Source: a virus. From it: DNA of 20,648 nt. The notes beneath the pieces are model-generated. The model had not been told where the DNA came from, did no database searches, and worked only from the letters and a program-made list of their open reading frames with translations. The stretch spans positions 1 through 20,648 of the IMG/VR virus record IMGVR_UViG_3300022690_001100; one strand, written 5' to 3'. The position numbers and the translations under genes were made by a program. Of the stretch, positions 8,844 through 18,993 are shown piece after piece. Each line of letters begins with the position of its first letter. The stretch's first letter is position 1.

Positions 8844-9254
8844 ATGCCTGATAAGTCCGTATACATCGGGGAGACCCTCAAAGGATGGATAGCATGGTGC
8901 GTTAATACTGATCAGTCAAGCTACGCAGCCGCTTCGGATCCCACCAATTTTGTAAGAAACAGCGGTGTTCTCGATATCGTAACCTACAGATCTGATGAAT
9001 ACAACTGGGAAGACCTCCCCAAATTCGGTATATTATGCATTAAAAAGTTTACACTAGATGCCCAGTCCAATACCAAGCCCCCCGAAGTCCACAATGGGTA
9101 TAACCAGTACTGCCCTTACAATGAAGTCTCTGACCTTGCAGATATAACCAACCATATCAAATGGGGCATAATGTTAGATAATTCCCAGGAGTTTGATGAT
9201 GTTTATTTTACTGCAAAAAACGATACTGCCGTAGTACTTACAATGCTAGATTAA
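8844..9254 (+). CDS. Hypothetical structural-type protein (136 aa)
   Basis: It lies 12 nt after the HTADPG-family gene and overlaps the repeat-rich fiber gene by one base (TAATG). Aromatic- and Asp/Asn-rich beta-type sequence with CVNTDQSSYAAASDPTNFV near the start, three cysteines and no signal peptide. An ATG at 8833 is out of frame, so 8844 is the start. Its position between two tail-type genes suggests a tail or fiber component; no family is recognised. Confidence 0.6.
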   Translation: MPDKSVYIGETLKGWIAWCVNTDQSSYAAASDPTNFVRNSGVLDIVTYRSDEYNWEDLPKFGILCIKKFTLDAQSNTKPPEVHNGYNQYCPYNEVSDLADITNHIKWGIMLDNSQEFDDVYFTAKNDTAVVLTMLD

Positions 9255-10918
9255 TGGCAACAACCTATATTCCCAAAGGTGCTAATGCTCATGTTTCTCC
9301 CTTTGCTGATGGTAACAGGGAAATGTCTGTTGGTACAGAAACTGCTGGAAGTTTTCTTGTTTCTCCTGTTAATGGTGGTGGATTTCAATTTCATGGATAT
9401 ATAACAGTACCAAACGTACCTAATTCAAATGCATGGGAGACATTAAATAACCAAACTTTAGAATTAGAAGTTACTTCAGCTGACAGCGATATACATGCCA
9501 GGGTAAGAATAGTGAGACTGGATTCTGCAGGAACCATAATACAAAATGGCGGTTTTACATCTACGCAATCTTGTGCAGCGTCCCGGGTATTCTTACCGGA
9601 CATTTTTTCATGGGAACCCGAGGAGGCTTGCGGTAATTTACTGGCTGTTGAAATTGAATTTGAGAACAGGGCTGCACATGGTGTCCATAGTGTTTCAATA
9701 GGATTAGGAACAACAGCAAACGAGTATATAAGTGATGTAACAGAAGGAACCGGATGCACCGGAACTTCCCCGATAACAGGAGCGATAAACGGGGCATCAA
9801 CTTTAACCGGAACCATTTCGGCTACTGTTGCCATTTCAGGAGCGATCAACGGACTATCTACTTTCACAGCTACGGGTGCATCAAAAGGATTTATATCGGG
9901 AGCTATTAACGGAGCTTCTACTATATCAGCCGCAATACAAGCCACAGGAGAATTAAGCGGGGCTATTAATGGCACATCAACCTTAACCGGCACAATATTA
10001 GCCCAAGGAGAATTATCAGGAGCCATTAACGGGCTATCAACTCTTACCGGTACTTTATTAGCCAATGGGGAACTATCAGGATCGATAAACGGCCTTTCTA
10101 CCTTTACCGGTTTCTTACAGGCTGTTATTCCTATCAGCGGGGCTATAAATGGTCTATCCACATTTACCGGAACCTTGCAGGCTATTGGAGACGTAGCAGG
10201 GGCAATAAACGGGTTATCTACTTTCACGGCCACACCATCAGGAATTGGCCAATTGTCGGGCACCATTAATGGATCATCTGTATTAACGGCTGTTATTTCA
10301 GCCAAGGGTGATTTGTCGGGCGCGATCACCGGACTTTCTACACTCACTGCAACAGGTGATTTAAAAGGATTTGTTTCAGGTGCCATCAATGGAACTTCAA
10401 CTTTAACCGGTACCATACTAGCTAAAGGTGATTTGTCGGGCATTATCACCGGACTTTCAACATTCACAGGTGCAGTTATTGATAAAGGTTCATTAGTTGG
10501 AGCTATTAATGGTTTATCCACCTTAACAGGTACACTCCAGGCTATTGGTGTTTTATCGGGCTCCATTAACGGGGTTAGTAGTTTCACGGCTATTATCATA
10601 GGAATAGGGCCCTTATCAGGAGCCATTAACGGATCAACTATTATTACAGCCAGCGGGGTTTCAAAAGGTTTTATCAATGGGGCTATTAACGGGAATTCAA
10701 CATTTACGGCAATCTTGTTTGCTACAGCTGGGATCGAGGGAGCAATTAACGGGGTAGGTACTTTCACCGGTACCCTTACTGTAGGGCTTCCTTTCTTGAA
10801 TCAAGTACTTTTGAGGACTTCTTTAACTGATACGATTGTACTTGAATCGGGGTTAACTGATACTATAATACTCCGCACAGAGATTGAAAAAGTAGTCCTT
10901 GAAACTTCCATAGCTTAG
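9254..10918 (+). CDS. Repeat-rich phage fiber protein (554 aa)
   Basis: An N-terminal beta-rich domain (~1-174) with TETAGSFLVSPVNGGGFQFH and ARVRIVRLDSAGTI is followed by seventeen 20-residue repeats with consensus SGAINGLSTLTGTLxAxGxL (residues ~175-514). A short tail contains SLTDTIVLESGLTDTIILRT. Gly/Asn turns and alternating Ser/Thr/hydrophobic residues suggest a beta-stranded fibrous shaft, as in phage tail fibers. The last gene of this tail block; 128 nt of structured non-coding DNA follows. The large open frame on the opposite strand is a product of the repeat. Confidence 0.75.
   Translation: MATTYIPKGANAHVSPFADGNREMSVGTETAGSFLVSPVNGGGFQFHGYITVPNVPNSNAWETLNNQTLELEVTSADSDIHARVRIVRLDSAGTIIQNGGFTSTQSCAASRVFLPDIFSWEPEEACGNLLAVEIEFENRAAHGVHSVSIGLGTTANEYISDVTEGTGCTGTSPITGAINGASTLTGTISATVAISGAINGLSTFTATGASKGFISGAINGASTISAAIQATGELSGAINGTSTLTGTILAQGELSGAINGLSTLTGTLLANGELSGSINGLSTFTGFLQAVIPISGAINGLSTFTGTLQAIGDVAGAINGLSTFTATPSGIGQLSGTINGSSVLTAVISAKGDLSGAITGLSTLTATGDLKGFVSGAINGTSTLTGTILAKGDLSGIITGLSTFTGAVIDKGSLVGAINGLSTLTGTLQAIGVLSGSINGVSSFTAIIIGIGPLSGAINGSTIITASGVSKGFINGAINGNSTFTAILFATAGIEGAINGVGTFTGTLTVGLPFLNQVLLRTSLTDTIVLESGLTDTIILRTEIEKVVLETSIA
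9776..10795 (+). repeat. Seventeen tandem 60-bp coding repeats
   Basis: From 9776 (codon 175 of the fiber gene) the pattern [A/S]GAINGxSTxTG recurs every 60 bp for seventeen units without a length change. Units differ by synonymous and non-synonymous substitutions. Some longer-range similarities, such as ATGASKGFI, ATGDLKGFV and ASGVSKGFI in units 2, 10 and 15, hint at block duplications. Confidence 0.95.
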
Positions 10919-11046: not shown

Positions 11047-11427
11047 ATGAAAAACAAATACAGAGCTAAAAGAAAACTAAATGGGGACTGGGTTTATGGA
11101 AGTCTCATTTATATTGGTAATGATTGGTGTCAAATTGTACCAACAGGTACCGAATACGATGAAATAGATATTCGGAAAACGCGGGTGATAACCCACACCA
11201 TAGGCCAACATATAGGATTAGATTACATTGATTTATATGAAGGTGATATTATGGATGATGGAAATGGAAATCTAGCAGTTATTGAATATGATAATGATGA
11301 TGATTCAGGCACTAGGTTCTGGCCAAAGTTTCTTGATCCTGATTGTGAATCTTGGGAAAAACAAAGATGGTCAGAATTAACAAAGGTTGGAAATATTCAT
11401 GATAACCTTGAATTACTAAACAAATGA
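11047..11427 (+). CDS. YopX family protein (126 aa)
   Basis: KYRAKRKLNGDWVYGSLIY at the start, VITHTIGQHIGLDYIDLYEG then DIM in the middle and VGNIHDNLELL at the end are the YopX (PF09643) signature. These proteins are widespread in phages and prophages; their biochemical role is unknown. ATG 11047 is preferred because the family starts with (M)xxKYRA; a longer in-frame GTG at 10990 would place 19 extra residues over the hairpin. The stop overlaps the HNH gene start (ATGA). Confidence 0.85.
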   Translation: MKNKYRAKRKLNGDWVYGSLIYIGNDWCQIVPTGTEYDEIDIRKTRVITHTIGQHIGLDYIDLYEGDIMDDGNGNLAVIEYDNDDDSGTRFWPKFLDPDCESWEKQRWSELTKVGNIHDNLELLNK

Positions 11428-11993
11428 ACACCCAATTAACAATAGAATTTGCTAAAACCAAAAATAAAACCGAAATTTGGAAGGATATTGTAGGATATGA
11501 GGGTTATTATCAGGTTAGTAATTATGGTCGTATAAGAACACTTGACAAAATATCCAAAAACAGATGGGGTGAATATTTAAAGAGGGGTAAAATGCGTAAA
11601 TTGTACCTAACCAAACATGGTTACGTACAAATGGATTTAAGCAAATTTGGAAGAAAAAAATCATTTAAAGTTCATAGATTATTAGCCATTGCATTTATTC
11701 CTAATCCTGAAAATAAAAGATGTGTTAATCACATTGATGGAAATAAAACAAATAATCATATTGACAATTTGGAGTGGGTTACTGATTCAGAAAATGTTAT
11801 TCATGGGTTTAAAATAGGATTAATTACTAGGCCTTTGGGTCAAGATCATCATGGTTCTAAATTAACCGACAAAGATGTTTTGTATATTAGGTCAGAAAAA
11901 AGTATTTCAAATGTCGAGATAGCTAAAAAATATGGATTATGCAGAAGTACTATTATCAAAATAAAATCAAGAATACTATGGTCACATATTTAA
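11424..11993 (+). CDS. Free-standing HNH homing endonuclease (NUMOD4-HNH)
   Basis: Domains: NUMOD4 at ~18-60 (IWKDIVGYEGYYQVSNYGRI), an HNH core at ~84-118 (VHRLLAIAF, then VNHIDGNKTNNHIDNLEW) and a C-terminal helix-turn-helix at ~145-182 (SKLTDKDVLYIRS, SNVEIAKKYGLCRSTIIKIK) that would read DNA. Such enzymes cut or nick a specific site and spread their own gene by repair. The gene overlaps yopX by ATGA and lies 10 nt before the next gene, typical of intergenic insertion in phage. It is unrelated in sequence to the HNH nested in the terminase intein. Confidence 0.9.
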   Translation: MNTQLTIEFAKTKNKTEIWKDIVGYEGYYQVSNYGRIRTLDKISKNRWGEYLKRGKMRKLYLTKHGYVQMDLSKFGRKKSFKVHRLLAIAFIPNPENKRCVNHIDGNKTNNHIDNLEWVTDSENVIHGFKIGLITRPLGQDHHGSKLTDKDVLYIRSEKSISNVEIAKKYGLCRSTIIKIKSRILWSHI

Positions 11994-14885: not shown

Positions 14886-15109
14886 TAGTTAAAGTAACAA
14901 TGTTCGCTTGCAATTGTGATAATTGTAGCAGACAATTTGTAGAACAGGAAACAGATTTTGTGGCTTTCACGGATGAAGATGGTATTAAGGAAAGTGTTGG
15001 GGAGGATGAAGATTGGTATAGTGAGGATGGTAAACATTATTGTCCTAGCTGTTTAGAAGGATTAGATGCTACCTTTATCAATTACGAGGTTATGGCATTG
15101 CATAAATGA
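14882..15109 (+). CDS. Small zinc-ribbon-like protein (75 aa)
   Basis: CNCDNCSRQF near residue 10 and HYCPSCLEGL near residue 50 give two CxxC pairs around an acidic, aromatic middle, a likely zinc-binding fold. ATG 14882 is placed by the leader motif. The stop overlaps the terminase start (ATGA), so it is coupled to terminase translation. Function unknown. Confidence 0.65.
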   Translation: MIVKVTMFACNCDNCSRQFVEQETDFVAFTDEDGIKESVGEDEDWYSEDGKHYCPSCLEGLDATFINYEVMALHK

Positions 15110-17565
15110 TCCCCGCCACCCACGTAGAATTCCCTCCCTTCAACAAACTGGTTAACCCTTCCTTTGCACATCTTTTCACGAACAAAGACCGTTACATATT
15201 CGAATGGGGTGGTCGTAACGGTTCCCGGTCTACATCCACAGGCAGATGTTTACTTTACCGCTGCTTAGATCATGAGTATTTCAGGTGTATTATGATCAGG
15301 AAGGTTCATAATTCCATCAAGGACAGCATATGGCAAACCCTGAAGGATGAAGCAGAAGCCCTTGGCATTGAAGACCTGTTTACTTTCAAAGTGTCCCCAC
15401 TTGAAATAGTATGCAACAACGGCAATAAATTCATTGCCAGGGGACTTGATCAACCGGCCAAGCTCAAATCCATCAAAGACCCTACATGCGCTTGGTACGA
15501 GGAAGGGAACCAAATCACAGTGGAAGACTTTATCACGGTGACTACTTCCATGAGATCATCCAAAGCCGAATTCCTTCAGGAGATCTTCACATTCAACCCA
15601 GAAACAGAAGGCAATTACGAAGACTTTTGGATGTGGAAAATGTTCTTTGAGGGGCATGCTGAAAAGAGTTTCAGATCTACTATTGATATTGAATACATAG
15701 TTGATGGTGAAAAAAAGATGGTACAATCTAATTACACGGTTCACCATTCAACCTACAGGGATAATCAATACCTGACTATCCAACAGATAGCCGACCTTGA
15801 GCAATGGAAGGTAATAAACCCGTATTACTATACAGTCTATACCTTGGGGGAATGGGGTAATAAGGCAATCGAGGGAAAGTTCTGGTCGGGTTTCAACAGG
15901 CTAAAACATGTTAAAGATGATATCTTTCTCGATCTTGAAAAGCCAATACATATGTCTTTTGATGAAAATAACAGGCCATATCCGGCAATGACTATATGGC
16001 AATATGATGAACTTGATGCGGTTTGGCAAGGTAATAAATTACTAAGACCCGAAACGGTCTTAGTAAGGCAAGTCCATGAAATTTGTTTAACTGAACCCAA
16101 TAACAAACTAGTAAAGGTAGCTAAAGAGTTAATCAGGTGGTTAACTATAAATGGGTGGCATAATTTGATTTATGAATATGGTGACGCTTCATCTGACAGG
16201 GAAGATACCAAACTTGAAAAAGGAGTCAATTATTTTACAATACTGAGGGATGTATTTGTTGAAGCGGGTTATAGTGTCAGAATTCGCAAGCCTAACAAAA
16301 ATCCACCTGTTGCTTTTTCGGCTGAATTTATTAATGCTTGTTTTGAGGCTAATTACCTTGGATTTGATATATCTATTTCTTCTGAATGTAAGGAGTCGAT
16401 CAATGATTATTTATTGGTTCAGGCCAAGACAGATGGCACAATGAAGAAGCCAAAAGATAAAAATGGTATAGAGATTTTAGGACATTGTTTTATAGGCGAA
16501 ACCACCATAAAAACCCTTAATGGTGATAAGCGAATCAAAGATATTAAAGAGGGTGAATTTGTTTTAACAAGGTTCGGATTTAGGAAAGTATTACGATCAT
16601 GGCTAACTAGAAAAGACGCAATAGTAAAAACATATAACATTTGTGGTAATGAAATTACATGTACCCCAGATCATAAGATTTATACCAAAAACAGGGGATT
16701 TATTGCAGCCGATAAGTTGATAGTTAGAGATATTTTTTGTATATTGAAGTCATGGAACCAAAAGAAATCATTTACAACGGTCATAAGTTCACCCGAGCAT
16801 TACGGGGTAAAAAAAGTGACACAATATATTATGTCGGAAGACCTTACATGCATCAAAGAAAAATCTATCTGCATAGGTACAAATGGACTATTCATAATGG
16901 CCCTATCCCAAAAGGGTATCACATCCACCATATTGATAAAAATCCTTTCAATAATGACATTTCTAATTATGAGTGTTTATCGGTTAAAGAACATAGGCAA
17001 AGGCATAAGGATGATAATTGGTATTATACAGATGCAGGAAAAGAGCATTTTGAAAAGGTTCAAGAACTGGCAAAAGTATGGCATAGATCAGAAGAGGGAA
17101 GGGAATGGCATCGACAACATGGAATTAATGTATTCTCCAACAGAGAATATAAAGAATACACCTGCGAAATATGTCAAAAAACCTTTAAAAGCAAAGGACC
17201 AAACGGGGCTAAATTTTGTTCCAACAATTGCAAAAGTGCTTACAGGCGGAAGATGGGATTTGATAACGAGCAAAGAAACTGTGAATATTGTAGCAAACAA
17301 TTCACAACTAACAAATATTCAAAAGCCAAATGTTGTTCAAAGTCTTGTGGTTCCAAATTCAGGAAGTATAGCTGATGTTTATGATCTTACAATTGAAGGA
17401 GACCACGAATTCTTTGCTAATAATATCCTAGTCCACAATTGCTCAGACAGTTTTCGCTATTTCTTTATTGAGGCTTTCAAAAAACAATTTGAGAAGTACA
17501 AGAAACGAGGAGCAGGAAAAGACAGGCCACAGGTTATCGGGCAACCGCAAAAGAAAACTTATTAA
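15106..17565 (+). CDS. terL: Phage terminase large subunit (PBSX-like) interrupted by an intein
   Basis: The 819-aa precursor would give a 501-aa mature protein after splicing. ATPase motifs: a Walker-A-like GGRNGSRS at 35-42 (Arg in place of the usual Lys), Walker B as CAWYEEGNQ at 128-136 and the coupling motif TFNPE. Nuclease acidic residues: Asp286 (MSFDENNRP), Asp360 (EYGDASSD) and Asp781 (CSDSFRYFF). The enzyme cuts concatemeric DNA and drives packaging into the prohead. The intein lies between His460 and Cys779, inside the third nuclease motif. The gene overlaps the zinc-ribbon gene by ATGA. Confidence 0.9.
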   Translation: MIPATHVEFPPFNKLVNPSFAHLFTNKDRYIFEWGGRNGSRSTSTGRCLLYRCLDHEYFRCIMIRKVHNSIKDSIWQTLKDEAEALGIEDLFTFKVSPLEIVCNNGNKFIARGLDQPAKLKSIKDPTCAWYEEGNQITVEDFITVTTSMRSSKAEFLQEIFTFNPETEGNYEDFWMWKMFFEGHAEKSFRSTIDIEYIVDGEKKMVQSNYTVHHSTYRDNQYLTIQQIADLEQWKVINPYYYTVYTLGEWGNKAIEGKFWSGFNRLKHVKDDIFLDLEKPIHMSFDENNRPYPAMTIWQYDELDAVWQGNKLLRPETVLVRQVHEICLTEPNNKLVKVAKELIRWLTINGWHNLIYEYGDASSDREDTKLEKGVNYFTILRDVFVEAGYSVRIRKPNKNPPVAFSAEFINACFEANYLGFDISISSECKESINDYLLVQAKTDGTMKKPKDKNGIEILGHCFIGETTIKTLNGDKRIKDIKEGEFVLTRFGFRKVLRSWLTRKDAIVKTYNICGNEITCTPDHKIYTKNRGFIAADKLIVRDIFCILKSWNQKKSFTTVISSPEHYGVKKVTQYIMSEDLTCIKEKSICIGTNGLFIMALSQKGITSTILIKILSIMTFLIMSVYRLKNIGKGIRMIIGIIQMQEKSILKRFKNWQKYGIDQKREGNGIDNMELMYSPTENIKNTPAKYVKKPLKAKDQTGLNFVPTIAKVLTGGRWDLITSKETVNIVANNSQLTNIQKPNVVQSLVVPNSGSIADVYDLTIEGDHEFFANNILVHNCSDSFRYFFIEAFKKQFEKYKKRGAGKDRPQVIGQPQKKTY
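16486..17439 (+). other. Intein (318 aa) in the terminase nuclease motif
   Basis: Block A begins at Cys461 (CFIGETTIKTLNGDKRIKDI). Block B is GNEITCTPDHKIYT, with TxxH at 520-523. Blocks F and G are DVYDLTIEGDHEFF and NNILVHN, followed by +1 Cys779. These are the residues needed for Cys1/His-Asn/Cys+1 splicing. Between B and F lie about 210 residues that look like no known domain in this frame, because that DNA encodes an HNH endonuclease in another frame. Homologous terminases continue directly from GH to xSDSxRY. Confidence 0.93.
16752..17375 (+). CDS. HNH homing endonuclease nested out of frame in the intein
   Basis: This 207-aa protein is read in a different + frame from the terminase. 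From ATG 16752 it carries YNGHKFTRALRGKK, a canonical HNH core GYHIHHIDKNPFNNDISNYE (55-74) with ECLSVKEHRQRH after it, and two zinc-finger-like modules at the C-terminus, YTCEICQKTF...KFCSNNCKSAYRRK and RNCEYCSKQF...KCCSKSCGSKF. The stop TGA (17373-17375) falls exactly where intein block F begins. No Shine-Dalgarno precedes ATG 16752; a TTG at 16737 is an alternative start. It probably drives homing of the intein. Expression could come from internal initiation or frameshifting. Confidence 0.88.
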   Translation: MEPKEIIYNGHKFTRALRGKKSDTIYYVGRPYMHQRKIYLHRYKWTIHNGPIPKGYHIHHIDKNPFNNDISNYECLSVKEHRQRHKDDNWYYTDAGKEHFEKVQELAKVWHRSEEGREWHRQHGINVFSNREYKEYTCEICQKTFKSKGPNGAKFCSNNCKSAYRRKMGFDNEQRNCEYCSKQFTTNKYSKAKCCSKSCGSKFRKYS

Positions 17566-17576
17566 CTTAATGTTAA
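17561..17576. promoter_or_regulatory. Palindrome ATTAACTTAATGTTAA, copy 2 (operator candidate)
   Basis: Identical to 12336-12351. It overlaps the terminase stop codon and lies 20 nt before TAACTTTG (17596-17603), which fits the -7 promoter box, so a repressor bound here could block that promoter. Confidence 0.45.
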
Positions 17577-17761
17577 TTTTGTTAGGTATTTTTATTAACT
17601 TTGTGTTAAATGGGGTGGGGTTACCCTTAAATATTATCCAACGTCATTAGTTCCCATTGTGATAGCGAAAGCGGGGGCTCTCTTGGCAGCGTGGTTTACC
17701 ACTAAGGTTAATATTGAAATATCACAACCCCATTTTTAATTGTTAACCAAAAACGAATTAA
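17566..17761 (+). other. 196-nt non-coding gap with possible structured RNA
   Basis: TAACTTTG (17596-17603) fits a -7 box but lacks a well-spaced TTTG. AAATGGGGT (17608-17616) can pair with ACCCCATTT (17727-17735), enclosing about 110 nt that includes GCGAAAGC (a GNRA-type loop, 17665-17672) and GTGGTTTACCAC (17691-17702). T5 follows the closing arm. The GC-rich patch stands out from the AT-rich surroundings. It could be a small RNA, a packaging site near terL or a leader. Confidence 0.35.
17746..17757 (+). promoter_or_regulatory. ACCAAAAACGAA leader motif
   Basis: Exact copy ending 4 nt before ATG 17762. Confidence 0.7.
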
Positions 17762-18037
17762 ATGAATTTTGAAGTAACACCATCAGACCGTTTAGATAAA
17801 TTCGATGAAAAGTTGGATTCAATTGGTAGCCGCTTAGATCGGATAGAACAGAACAATTACCGCAATCAAAATCTGACTAAAAAAGAAGCTGCAAAATTGT
17901 ATAAAGTTTGTGTTAAAACCTTGGAGATTTGGATGAGAAAAGGCTTACTTCCATACATCCAAGTTCAATCAAAAATTTTCCTGAAAGTTTCCGATATGGA
18001 AGATTTATTTGATAAAAATTACAAAAAAGGAAAATGA
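17762..18037 (+). CDS. Excisionase-like HTH protein with coiled-coil start (91 aa)
   Basis: Residues ~9-32 (DRLDKFDEKLDSIGSRLDRI) form a heptad-like coiled coil. Residues ~38-85 (LTKKEAAKLYKVCVKTLEIW, then MRKGLLPYIQVQSKIFLKVS) match the helix-turn-helix-wing of HTH_17/excisionase-type DNA-binding proteins. These are common in Bacteroidota mobile elements and phages as regulators or directionality factors. No integrase is visible in this window, so a regulator is equally likely. The start is set by the leader motif. Confidence 0.75.
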   Translation: MNFEVTPSDRLDKFDEKLDSIGSRLDRIEQNNYRNQNLTKKEAAKLYKVCVKTLEIWMRKGLLPYIQVQSKIFLKVSDMEDLFDKNYKKGK

Positions 18038-18501: not shown

Positions 18502-18993
18502 ATGAAAACAAAAATTAAAATCAAAACCTTTTTAGGAAAATTATTATTTGAATATGAATCAGATGATAATTCAATAAAAAAAACATTAGAGAAAGCCGTC
18601 CTCCGTGGTGCCGTCCTCCGTGGTGCCGTCCTCCGTGGTGCCGTCCTCCGTGGTGCCGACCTCCGTGGTGCCGTCCTCCAACCGATAAAAGATGATTATT
18701 TTTCTGTTCTTCTCAAAGCAATTCCAGAAATACCTAATCTTAAAAAAGCTATTGAATCAGGAAAAATTGATGGCTCTACTTATGATGGTGAATGTGCATG
18801 TTTATGTGGCACATTAGAAAAATCGGACAATAAAAAGGTTGTTTCAATAATTCATGATAACAGGGATTCAAACAGGCCGATTGAAAGGTTTTTTATGGGT
18901 ATTAAAAAGGGGGACACTCCCGAAACTAGCCAATTCTCAAAACTGGCTTTAGAATGGATTGATGAATTTGAAGGGTATTTGAAAGTGAAATGA
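18502..18993 (+). CDS. Pentapeptide-repeat phage protein (163 aa)
   Basis: Residues ~32-60 are six pentapeptide units (AVLRG/ADLRG). The C-terminal domain (~62-163) carries KIDGSTYDGECACLCGTLEK, NRPIERFFMGI and KGDTPETSQFSKLALEWIDE, a combination I recall from other phage pentapeptide proteins of unknown function. The short beta-helical repeat is much smaller than in DNA-mimic pentapeptide proteins such as Qnr or MfpA, so gyrase protection is unlikely. The start is set by the leader motif. ATGA overlap with the ASCH-like gene. Confidence 0.75.
   Translation: MKTKIKIKTFLGKLLFEYESDDNSIKKTLEKAVLRGAVLRGAVLRGAVLRGADLRGAVLQPIKDDYFSVLLKAIPEIPNLKKAIESGKIDGSTYDGECACLCGTLEKSDNKKVVSIIHDNRDSNRPIERFFMGIKKGDTPETSQFSKLALEWIDEFEGYLKVK
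18595..18679 (+). repeat. 15-bp tandem repeat array in the pentapeptide gene
   Basis: GCCGTCCTCCGTGGT occurs four times in perfect tandem (18595-18654), then once with T to A (18655-18669, Val to Asp codon), then as a 10-bp partial. It is far more GC-rich than its surroundings and multiple of three, so copy number can change without breaking the frame. Confidence 0.95.

What the first reader, a model, noticed from the sequence alone, without database searches (positions are those of the whole stretch)
16486..17439. Intein whose homing endonuclease is encoded in a different reading frame
The terminase reading frame contains complete intein splicing blocks (Cys461, TxxH, DHEFF, His-Asn, +1 Cys779). 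The ~624 nt between blocks B and F encode, in another + frame, a full HNH protein with HIHHID, NN and EHRxxH motifs plus two zinc-finger-like modules. The nested gene ends within one codon of block F. Known inteins normally carry the endonuclease in frame as part of the precursor, or lack it. An out-of-frame nested endonuclease would separate splicing from cutting: the nuclease can be made as an independent protein at its own level. I do not know of this being a commonly described arrangement, but I cannot search the literature.
Basis: partly seen in the sequence, partly recalled or inferred. Interest (0 to 1): 0.93.

Follow-up and report, generated by a model that had tools for sequence, protein, structure and literature searches.

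The report
A phage DNA-packaging gene carries a self-splicing protein insert whose middle part also encodes, in a shifted reading frame, a separate DNA-cutting enzyme; about a hundred other phages have the same double-coded arrangement, which seems not to have been described for inteins.

Summary
One 819-codon terL frame (15106-17565) contains a full intein (16486-17439). Its interior also encodes, in the -1/+2 frame, a 207-aa HNH + two-zinc-module protein (16752-17375). It is not a base error or chance. 68 distinct loci found through the HNH, and 46 of 78 found through the splicing domain alone (about 107 in all), have it, always in the same frame offset. They include the isolated phages Tetrasphaera TJE1 and Acinetobacter Highwayman. 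No in-frame HNH was found; the rest are mini-inteins. Five loci are decayed: the HNH is partly deleted but the terL frame is intact. In the overlap the HNH frame is under purifying selection while the terL frame drifts (dN/dS near 1). AlphaFold gives the HNH pLDDT 94, the splicing blocks about 95, the overprinted linker mostly below 50. HNH start codons sit just after block B with enriched Shine-Dalgarno sites, favouring internal initiation over frameshifting. The offset is fixed because only the +1 frame of this HNH gene can be kept free of stops. The closest precedent, the ShiLan methylase insert, has the same offset but no intein. New variant of a known kind; homing and splicing are inferred.

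The parts
15106..16485 (+). N-extein of the large terminase subunit (TerL, Terminase_3)
   Evidence: Pfam PF04466 8.4e-41; empty-site relative L002 aligns up to the insertion point
16486..17439 (+). Intein, 318 aa, in the terL frame (Cys1 ... His-Asn)
   Evidence: PF14890 1.3e-12; Hint fold, best PDB matches gp41-1 3.7e-6 and NrdJ-1 4.5e-5
16486..16752 (+). N-terminal splicing region (blocks A to B; T60xxH63 = TPDH at 16663-16674)
   Evidence: invariant C1, T60, H63 in 41 to 44 related inteins; pLDDT mostly 94-97
16752..17375 (+). Nested HNH endonuclease gene in frame -1/+2 to terL (ATG start; alternative TTG at 16737); 207 aa plus stop
   Evidence: PF13392 5.7e-14, PHROG_15471 3e-41, pLDDT 93.9, dN/dS 0.12 against L001
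16926..17006 (+). HNH catalytic region in the HNH frame (H59 H60 x D62 ... N67 N68 ... N72 ... H81 ... H85)
   Evidence: these residues are invariant or nearly so over 34 relatives
17163..17231 (+). First CxxC...CxxxC zinc-ribbon-like module of the HNH protein (C138, C141, C156, C160)
   Evidence: invariant cysteines
17280..17348 (+). Second CxxC...CxxxC module (C177, C180, C195, C199)
   Evidence: invariant or nearly invariant cysteines
16753..17352 (+). Overprinted linker of the intein (terL frame, intein residues 90-289): open but not conserved as protein
   Evidence: terL-frame dN/dS near 1 in the overlap; pLDDT mostly below 50, at most about 70
17353..17439 (+). C-terminal splicing blocks F and G (DVYDLTIEGDHEFFANNILVHN)
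   Evidence: pLDDT 94-96; conserved A311, L315, N318
17440..17565 (+). C-extein of TerL, +1 Cys779 (CSDSFRY)
   Evidence: empty allele in L002 reads GIELLGH-LSETKRY

Best explanation
This is a mobile intein in a phage terL gene that carries its homing endonuclease as a separate gene overprinted on the intein's linker. The terL frame is translated straight through as TerL-N/Hint-N/unstructured 200-residue linker/Hint-C/TerL-C, and the intein splices itself out to give TerL. On the same mRNA, ribosomes start again just after block B in the -1/+2 frame and make a free 207-aa HNH + zinc-module protein, which stops right before block F. That protein probably cuts intein-less terL near the insertion point, so that repair copies in the whole element. 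The terL frame across the HNH gene is kept only free of stops; the HNH frame carries the conserved protein. Shown by sequence: both frames, conservation, selection, frame rule, start sites, decay series. Inferred: splicing, expression, cutting and homing.
For: Anatomy. Same architecture in 68 distinct loci found via the HNH and in 46 of 78 found via splicing blocks only, the other 32 being mini-inteins, none in frame. Isolates TJE1 and Highwayman and the Rhizobium and Beijerinckia genomes included. HNH-frame dN/dS 0.12-0.50 in 9 pairs, terL-frame 0.6-1.6 in the overlap, against 0.12-0.36 in the splicing blocks. Codon-position differences 540/456/865 for HNH positions 1/2/3. AlphaFold contrast. 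Start codons 251-290 nt from the intein start in most loci; SD energy mean -5.4 against -2.4 in controls, p = 4e-13. Fossil HNHs with part of the nuclease deleted and the terL frame intact. Mini and nested forms interspersed on the splicing-domain tree. Precise empty site in relative L002.
Against: No expression, splicing or cleavage data. In the window itself the HNH start has only a weak SD (-2.9); a Bacteroidota-like host would make SD little used, but the host is not established. One pair (L050-L059) shows little contrast between frames (0.50 against 0.60). The family profile weakly matches only one solved endonuclease, I-HmuI (0.0034; fold search not significant).
Confidence: 0.86

Rival explanations
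1. The HNH is made by -1 ribosomal frameshifting from the terL frame, giving a TerL-N/Hint-N/HNH fusion, rather than by internal initiation.
For: The offset is exactly that of a -1 shift, in all loci.
Against: Canonical slippery heptamers lie in the possible shift zone in only 5 of 68 loci, and not in the window; 67 of 68 have a start codon there and SD sites are enriched. The offset is explained by stop avoidance alone.
Confidence: 0.05
2. The HNH is not a homing enzyme but a packaging partner of terminase (as proposed for the HK97 HNH protein), kept because it helps TerL.
For: All clear cases lie in terL; free homologues sit next to terL in L014-L017. HNH proteins that act with terminase are discussed in PMC10448857.
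Against: 32 of 78 inteins of the class have no HNH and others carry only fragments; loss is scattered over the tree. A required partner would not be lost so often. The zinc-module architecture is that of phage HNH endonuclease families.
Confidence: 0.08
3. Artefact: an indel pair or assembly error displaced an originally in-frame HNH.
For: None beyond the fact that the window is a single contig.
Against: The same offset in about 107 distinct elements from different phages, GC contents and projects, including isolates; stop codons and start sites of the HNH gene sit at matching places.
Confidence: 0.01
4. The insert is an RNA intron with an intronic HNH gene, not an intein.
For: HNH genes of this kind also occur in group I introns (general knowledge).
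Against: No Rfam match in 15000-18000 beyond a chance hit below threshold; the terL frame is open with complete splicing blocks and a Hint fold; purifying selection on the splicing blocks in the terL frame.
Confidence: 0.01

Closest known systems
ShiLan domain (mycobacteriophage ShiLan gp65 DNA methylase; Arsenault, Gosselin and Gogarten 2025, PMC11855218) and the Pacc40 insert
   Same: An insertion that keeps the host gene open and hides an HNH + zinc-finger protein in another frame; my HMM finds it at L222:4519-4962 (E 2.7e-5) and the frame offset is the same, offset 1.
   Different: No intein splicing domain, and the authors expect no splicing. They propose leaderless initiation in Mycobacterium. 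Here there is a complete intein, a different host gene, many phage groups and SD-type starts.
Canonical large inteins with an in-frame homing endonuclease (e.g. PI-SceI; mycobacteriophage TerL inteins, PMC5050341)
   Same: Hint splicing domain, endonuclease placed between blocks B and F, mini-intein derivatives.
   Different: Endonuclease encoded in another frame and made as a free protein; the in-frame linker is disordered filler. Most insertion sites here are in the TerL nuclease domain; PMC5050341 reports mycobacteriophage sites in the ATPase domain.
Fractured genes with natural split inteins and a free-standing endonuclease between the halves (Dassa et al. 2009; paper not held, known from citations and general knowledge)
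   Same: Endonuclease as a separate protein coded between intein halves; the splicing domain here is closest to the split inteins gp41-1 and NrdJ-1. The same HNH family sits in such split terL genes.
   Different: Here the host gene is one continuous frame and splicing can happen in cis; the endonuclease gene overlaps the intein frame completely.
Group I intron HNH endonucleases (I-HmuI, PDB 1u3e)
   Same: HNH family; only profile match among solved structures (0.0034).
   Different: Carrier is an intein, not an intron; different DNA-binding modules.

Membership tests
Intein (class 1) | Nucleophile at position 1, block B TxxH, terminal Asn, +1 Cys/Ser/Thr | tested here: met
   C1, T60xxH63, H317-N318, +1 Cys
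Intein (class 1) | Hint fold | tested here: met
   Splicing blocks pLDDT mostly 94-97; Foldseek to gp41-1 3.7e-6
Intein (class 1) | Precise in-frame insertion with empty alleles | tested here: met
   L002 terL is 61% identical and lacks the insert at exactly this point
Intein (class 1) | Protein splicing activity | not testable with these tools
   needs expression
Large intein with homing endonuclease domain | Endonuclease translated in frame as part of the intein | tested here: not met
   0 in-frame among 78 and among the loci; the window HNH is in frame -1/+2
HNH homing endonuclease (HNH_3) | HNH motif with catalytic His/Asn/His | tested here: met
   PF13392 5.7e-14; invariant H59 H60 D62 N67 N68 N72 H81
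HNH homing endonuclease (HNH_3) | Cuts the intein-less allele and promotes transfer | not testable with these tools
   scattered presence, decay series and an empty relative are consistent only
ShiLan-type hidden HNH insertion | HNH in another frame of an insertion that leaves the host frame open | tested here: met
   same offset in L222 and in the window
ShiLan-type hidden HNH insertion | No self-splicing domain | tested here: not met
   the window has a complete intein
Fractured gene / split intein | Host gene in two ORFs, trans-splicing | tested here: not met
   continuous 819-codon ORF; split relatives exist elsewhere
Group I intron | Conserved ribozyme core | tested here: not met
   no Rfam intron hit

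The most novel reading that the evidence does not exclude
Out-of-frame HNH inteins are a widespread class and the evolutionary step that leads to natural split inteins: once the endonuclease is a free gene overlapping the linker, a single stop in the host frame converts the intein into two trans-splicing halves. In the split terL genes seen here the C half still lies in the same offset-1 frame to the HNH in 13 of 15, and the splicing domain is closest to the split inteins gp41-1 and NrdJ-1.
Probability: 0.35. Interest if true: 0.92.

Novelty: new variant of a known kind. Interest (0 to 1): 0.86.

Why it matters
Inteins are usually presented as carrying their endonuclease inside the same polypeptide, or having lost it. 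Here is a large clade in which the two functions are encoded in the same DNA but made as different proteins, so cutting and splicing can be tuned separately and the endonuclease can decay without touching splicing. It gives a natural test system for how overlapping genes evolve, with a simple rule (only the +1 frame of this gene can stay open) that fits the frame in all cases, including ShiLan. It offers a route from ordinary inteins to split inteins, and it shows that gene callers hide the endonuclease: TJE1, Highwayman and LS06 are annotated with TerL alone at this place.

Tried and rejected
One search used a query in the wrong frame (16753 instead of 16752) and found nothing; it is not evidence. 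Frameshift expression was tested and is poorly supported. Group I intron: no Rfam match. A conserved structural or functional role of the linker residues: not supported, dN/dS near 1 and low pLDDT; the one invariant linker residue, G199, is probably a by-product of the HNH Trp-His codons (inference). Internal promoter for the HNH: sigma-70-like sites are no more frequent than in shuffles, so I claim only internal translation. The fold search with the HNH model gave no match at E <= 0.001. A first version of the mini/nested tree mislabelled a few long mini-inteins by a length cut; one search replaces it. The ShiLan accession was first guessed wrongly (one search is Mutaforma13); one search is ShiLan.

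Full report
1. Observation. The terL frame is open from 15106 to 17565 (819 codons) and contains an intein from Cys461 (16486) to Asn778 (17439), with +1 Cys779. Pfam finds Terminase_3 (8e-41) and Intein_splicing (1.3e-12, above cut-off) in this frame and HNH_3 (5.7e-14) in the other; PHROGs assigns the HNH to phrog_15471 (3e-41). The HNH gene runs from ATG 16752 (or TTG 16737) to a stop at 17375, in the -1/+2 frame relative to terL.

2. Not chance and not an error. Permuting synonymous codons inside the HNH gene, which keeps its protein and codon usage, leaves the terL frame open in 1.3% of shuffles for the window; the other alternative frame has 28 stops. A viral contig 56% identical in TerL, L001, has the same architecture, and so do the isolated phages Tetrasphaera TJE1 and Acinetobacter Highwayman and the records MT838676 and Rhodobacteraceae phage LS06.

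3. Census. Starting from the HNH, 68 distinct loci have it nested in a continuous host ORF with both splicing regions, always with host frame = HNH frame + 1, never + 2 and never in frame. Starting from the splicing blocks alone, without any HNH sequence, 78 distinct inteins split into 46 with the HNH (all offset 1) and 32 mini-inteins of 121-164 aa; none has an in-frame HNH and none is long without it. After removal of duplicates the two searches give about 107 nested and 29 mini forms. The five Pfam-checked hosts beside the window are TerL of different families (Terminase_3, Terminase_6N); the others I judge to be TerL from insertion-site motifs. Most sites lie in the DHxxDAxRY motif, within a few residues of one another, and some at Walker B or near other TerL motifs.

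4. Why always this frame. In the +1 frame a stop can arise only from codons ending in TA or TG, that is Leu, Val, Met and Ile-ATA, which are few in this protein and mostly replaceable. In the +2 frame any codon ending in T before Lys, Asn, Asp, Glu, Arg-AGR or Ser-AGY makes a stop, and the protein is rich in these. Accordingly nested genes have 0 stops in +1 (2.4 expected after shuffling) and average 20 in +2; free-standing homologues average 7.2 in +1 and only 1 of 15 is open. That one, L102, is itself odd (see passing notes). The ShiLan insert has the same offset.

5. Which frame is selected. In the overlap, pairs of relatives differ mostly at HNH third positions (540/456/865 for positions 1/2/3). 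Nei-Gojobori dN and dS in the HNH frame give low ratios (window-L001 0.29/2.40; L068-L071 0.12/0.56) while the terL frame gives about 1 (0.45/0.39; 0.21/0.16). Outside the overlap, the splicing blocks in the terL frame are conserved (ratios 0.12-0.36). So the HNH protein is conserved, the splicing blocks are conserved, and the linker need only stay open. Overlap biases such estimates, but the contrast is clear in eight of nine pairs and weak in L050-L059. AlphaFold agrees: HNH model mean pLDDT 93.9; intein model mostly 94-97 over residues 1-88 and 290-318 but mostly below 50 over the linker. The intein model matches gp41-1, NrdJ-1 and other inteins in the PDB; the HNH profile matches I-HmuI (0.0034), and the HNH model has no significant fold match.

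6. How the HNH is made. In 67 of 68 loci a start codon lies between the last upstream stop in the HNH frame and the conserved start of the protein, in most 251-290 nt from the intein start, i.e. directly after block B. Pairing with the anti-Shine-Dalgarno sequence is stronger than at control start codons (-5.4 against -2.4 kcal/mol; at most -4 in 66% against 26%; p = 4e-13). Slippery heptamers for -1 frameshifting occur in 5 of 68. The window and L001 have weak SD sites. Internal initiation on the terL mRNA is therefore the favoured route; no promoter signal exceeds chance.

7. Life cycle. Five inteins keep only pieces of the HNH, for example the last zinc module (L189) or the C-terminal half without the catalytic region (L169), in the same offset frame and with the terL frame intact. 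Mini and nested forms are interspersed on the splicing-domain tree (24 changes, at least 7 forced by well supported branches, close to random). A relative, L002, has the uninterrupted site. This is the pattern expected of the homing cycle: invasion, decay of the nuclease, persistence of the spliceable intein. HNH, splicing-domain and TerL distances correlate (Mantel r 0.41-0.56), so the parts largely travel together. Homing itself is inferred.

8. Relation to split inteins. The HNH search also brought in about 17 fractured terL genes in which the N half with the intein N part, the HNH gene and the C half with the intein C part are separate ORFs. In 13 of 15 with a C half found, that half is in the same offset-1 frame and overlaps the end of the HNH gene. 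They form one region of the HNH tree, with a few nested forms among them. A single stop in the terL frame would turn a nested intein into this state. This is a hypothesis, not a result.

9. Literature. The only out-of-frame HNH insertions found in the searchable library are ShiLan and Pacc40 in mycobacteriophage methylases (PMC11855218) and a genome announcement that reports another out-of-frame HNH in a methylase (PMC12613952); in the former paper no splicing domain was found. Work on mycobacteriophage TerL inteins (PMC5050341) describes sites in the ATPase domain and endonuclease activity of the inteins themselves. Subscription papers, including Dassa et al. 2009, are not held, so a description elsewhere cannot be excluded.

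10. Verdict. Observation confirmed, interpretation supported and extended: a widespread class of phage TerL inteins whose homing-type HNH endonuclease is overprinted in one fixed alternative frame. New variant of a known kind. What is missing is bench evidence for splicing, expression and cutting.

Noticed in passing
L007, L032, L039, L048, L077, L081, L104, L107, L108, L110: Fractured terL genes: intein N and C halves on separate ORFs with a related HNH gene between them; the C half overlaps the HNH gene end, in 13 of 15 in the same offset-1 frame.
   Followed up: partly
L100:3980-4000: On a contig assigned to Methanimicrococcus (Methanosarcinaceae, a family known for pyrrolysine) both the HNH frame (TAG 3987) and the terL frame (TAG 3994) contain a single TAG, and both are open if TAG is read as sense.
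   Followed up: partly
L102:3432-4275: An HNH gene directly after a complete terL; its offset-1 frame is open and runs into a duplicate of the terL C-terminus (LGDCFRYALVNFEYSTYKQ), as if the HNH had inserted in the same frame relation without an intein.
   Followed up: partly
L169, L178, L180, L189, L221: Inteins with HNH fossils: parts of the HNH deleted, remnants in the offset frame, terL frame intact.
   Followed up: yes
L222:4519-4962: The ShiLan hidden HNH matches my HNH profile (2.7e-5) and has the same offset to its host gene as the terL inteins.
   Followed up: yes
window 11424-11993: A second, free-standing HNH gene (NUMOD4 1.7e-14 + HNH_3 3.2e-10) in the same phage.
   Followed up: no
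window 16882-17445 (TerL residues 593-780): PHROG families match the overprinted linker plus blocks F/G; phrog_35162 ('unknown function') may be an annotation of such a linker or of a split C half.
   Followed up: no
window 18595-18679: 5.7 copies of a 15-nt repeat (GCCGTCCTCCGTGGT) coding AVLRG pentapeptide repeats in ORF 18502-18993.
   Followed up: no
window 9254-10918: 554-aa ORF with degenerate 20-residue repeats (GAINGLSTLTGTL), no Pfam match; a 458-codon antisense ORF lies over it, probably a by-product of the repeats.
   Followed up: no
window 15205-15240: TerL Walker A region reads WGGRNGSRSTST, without the usual Lys that L001 (WGGRNSGKSLSA) has.
   Followed up: no
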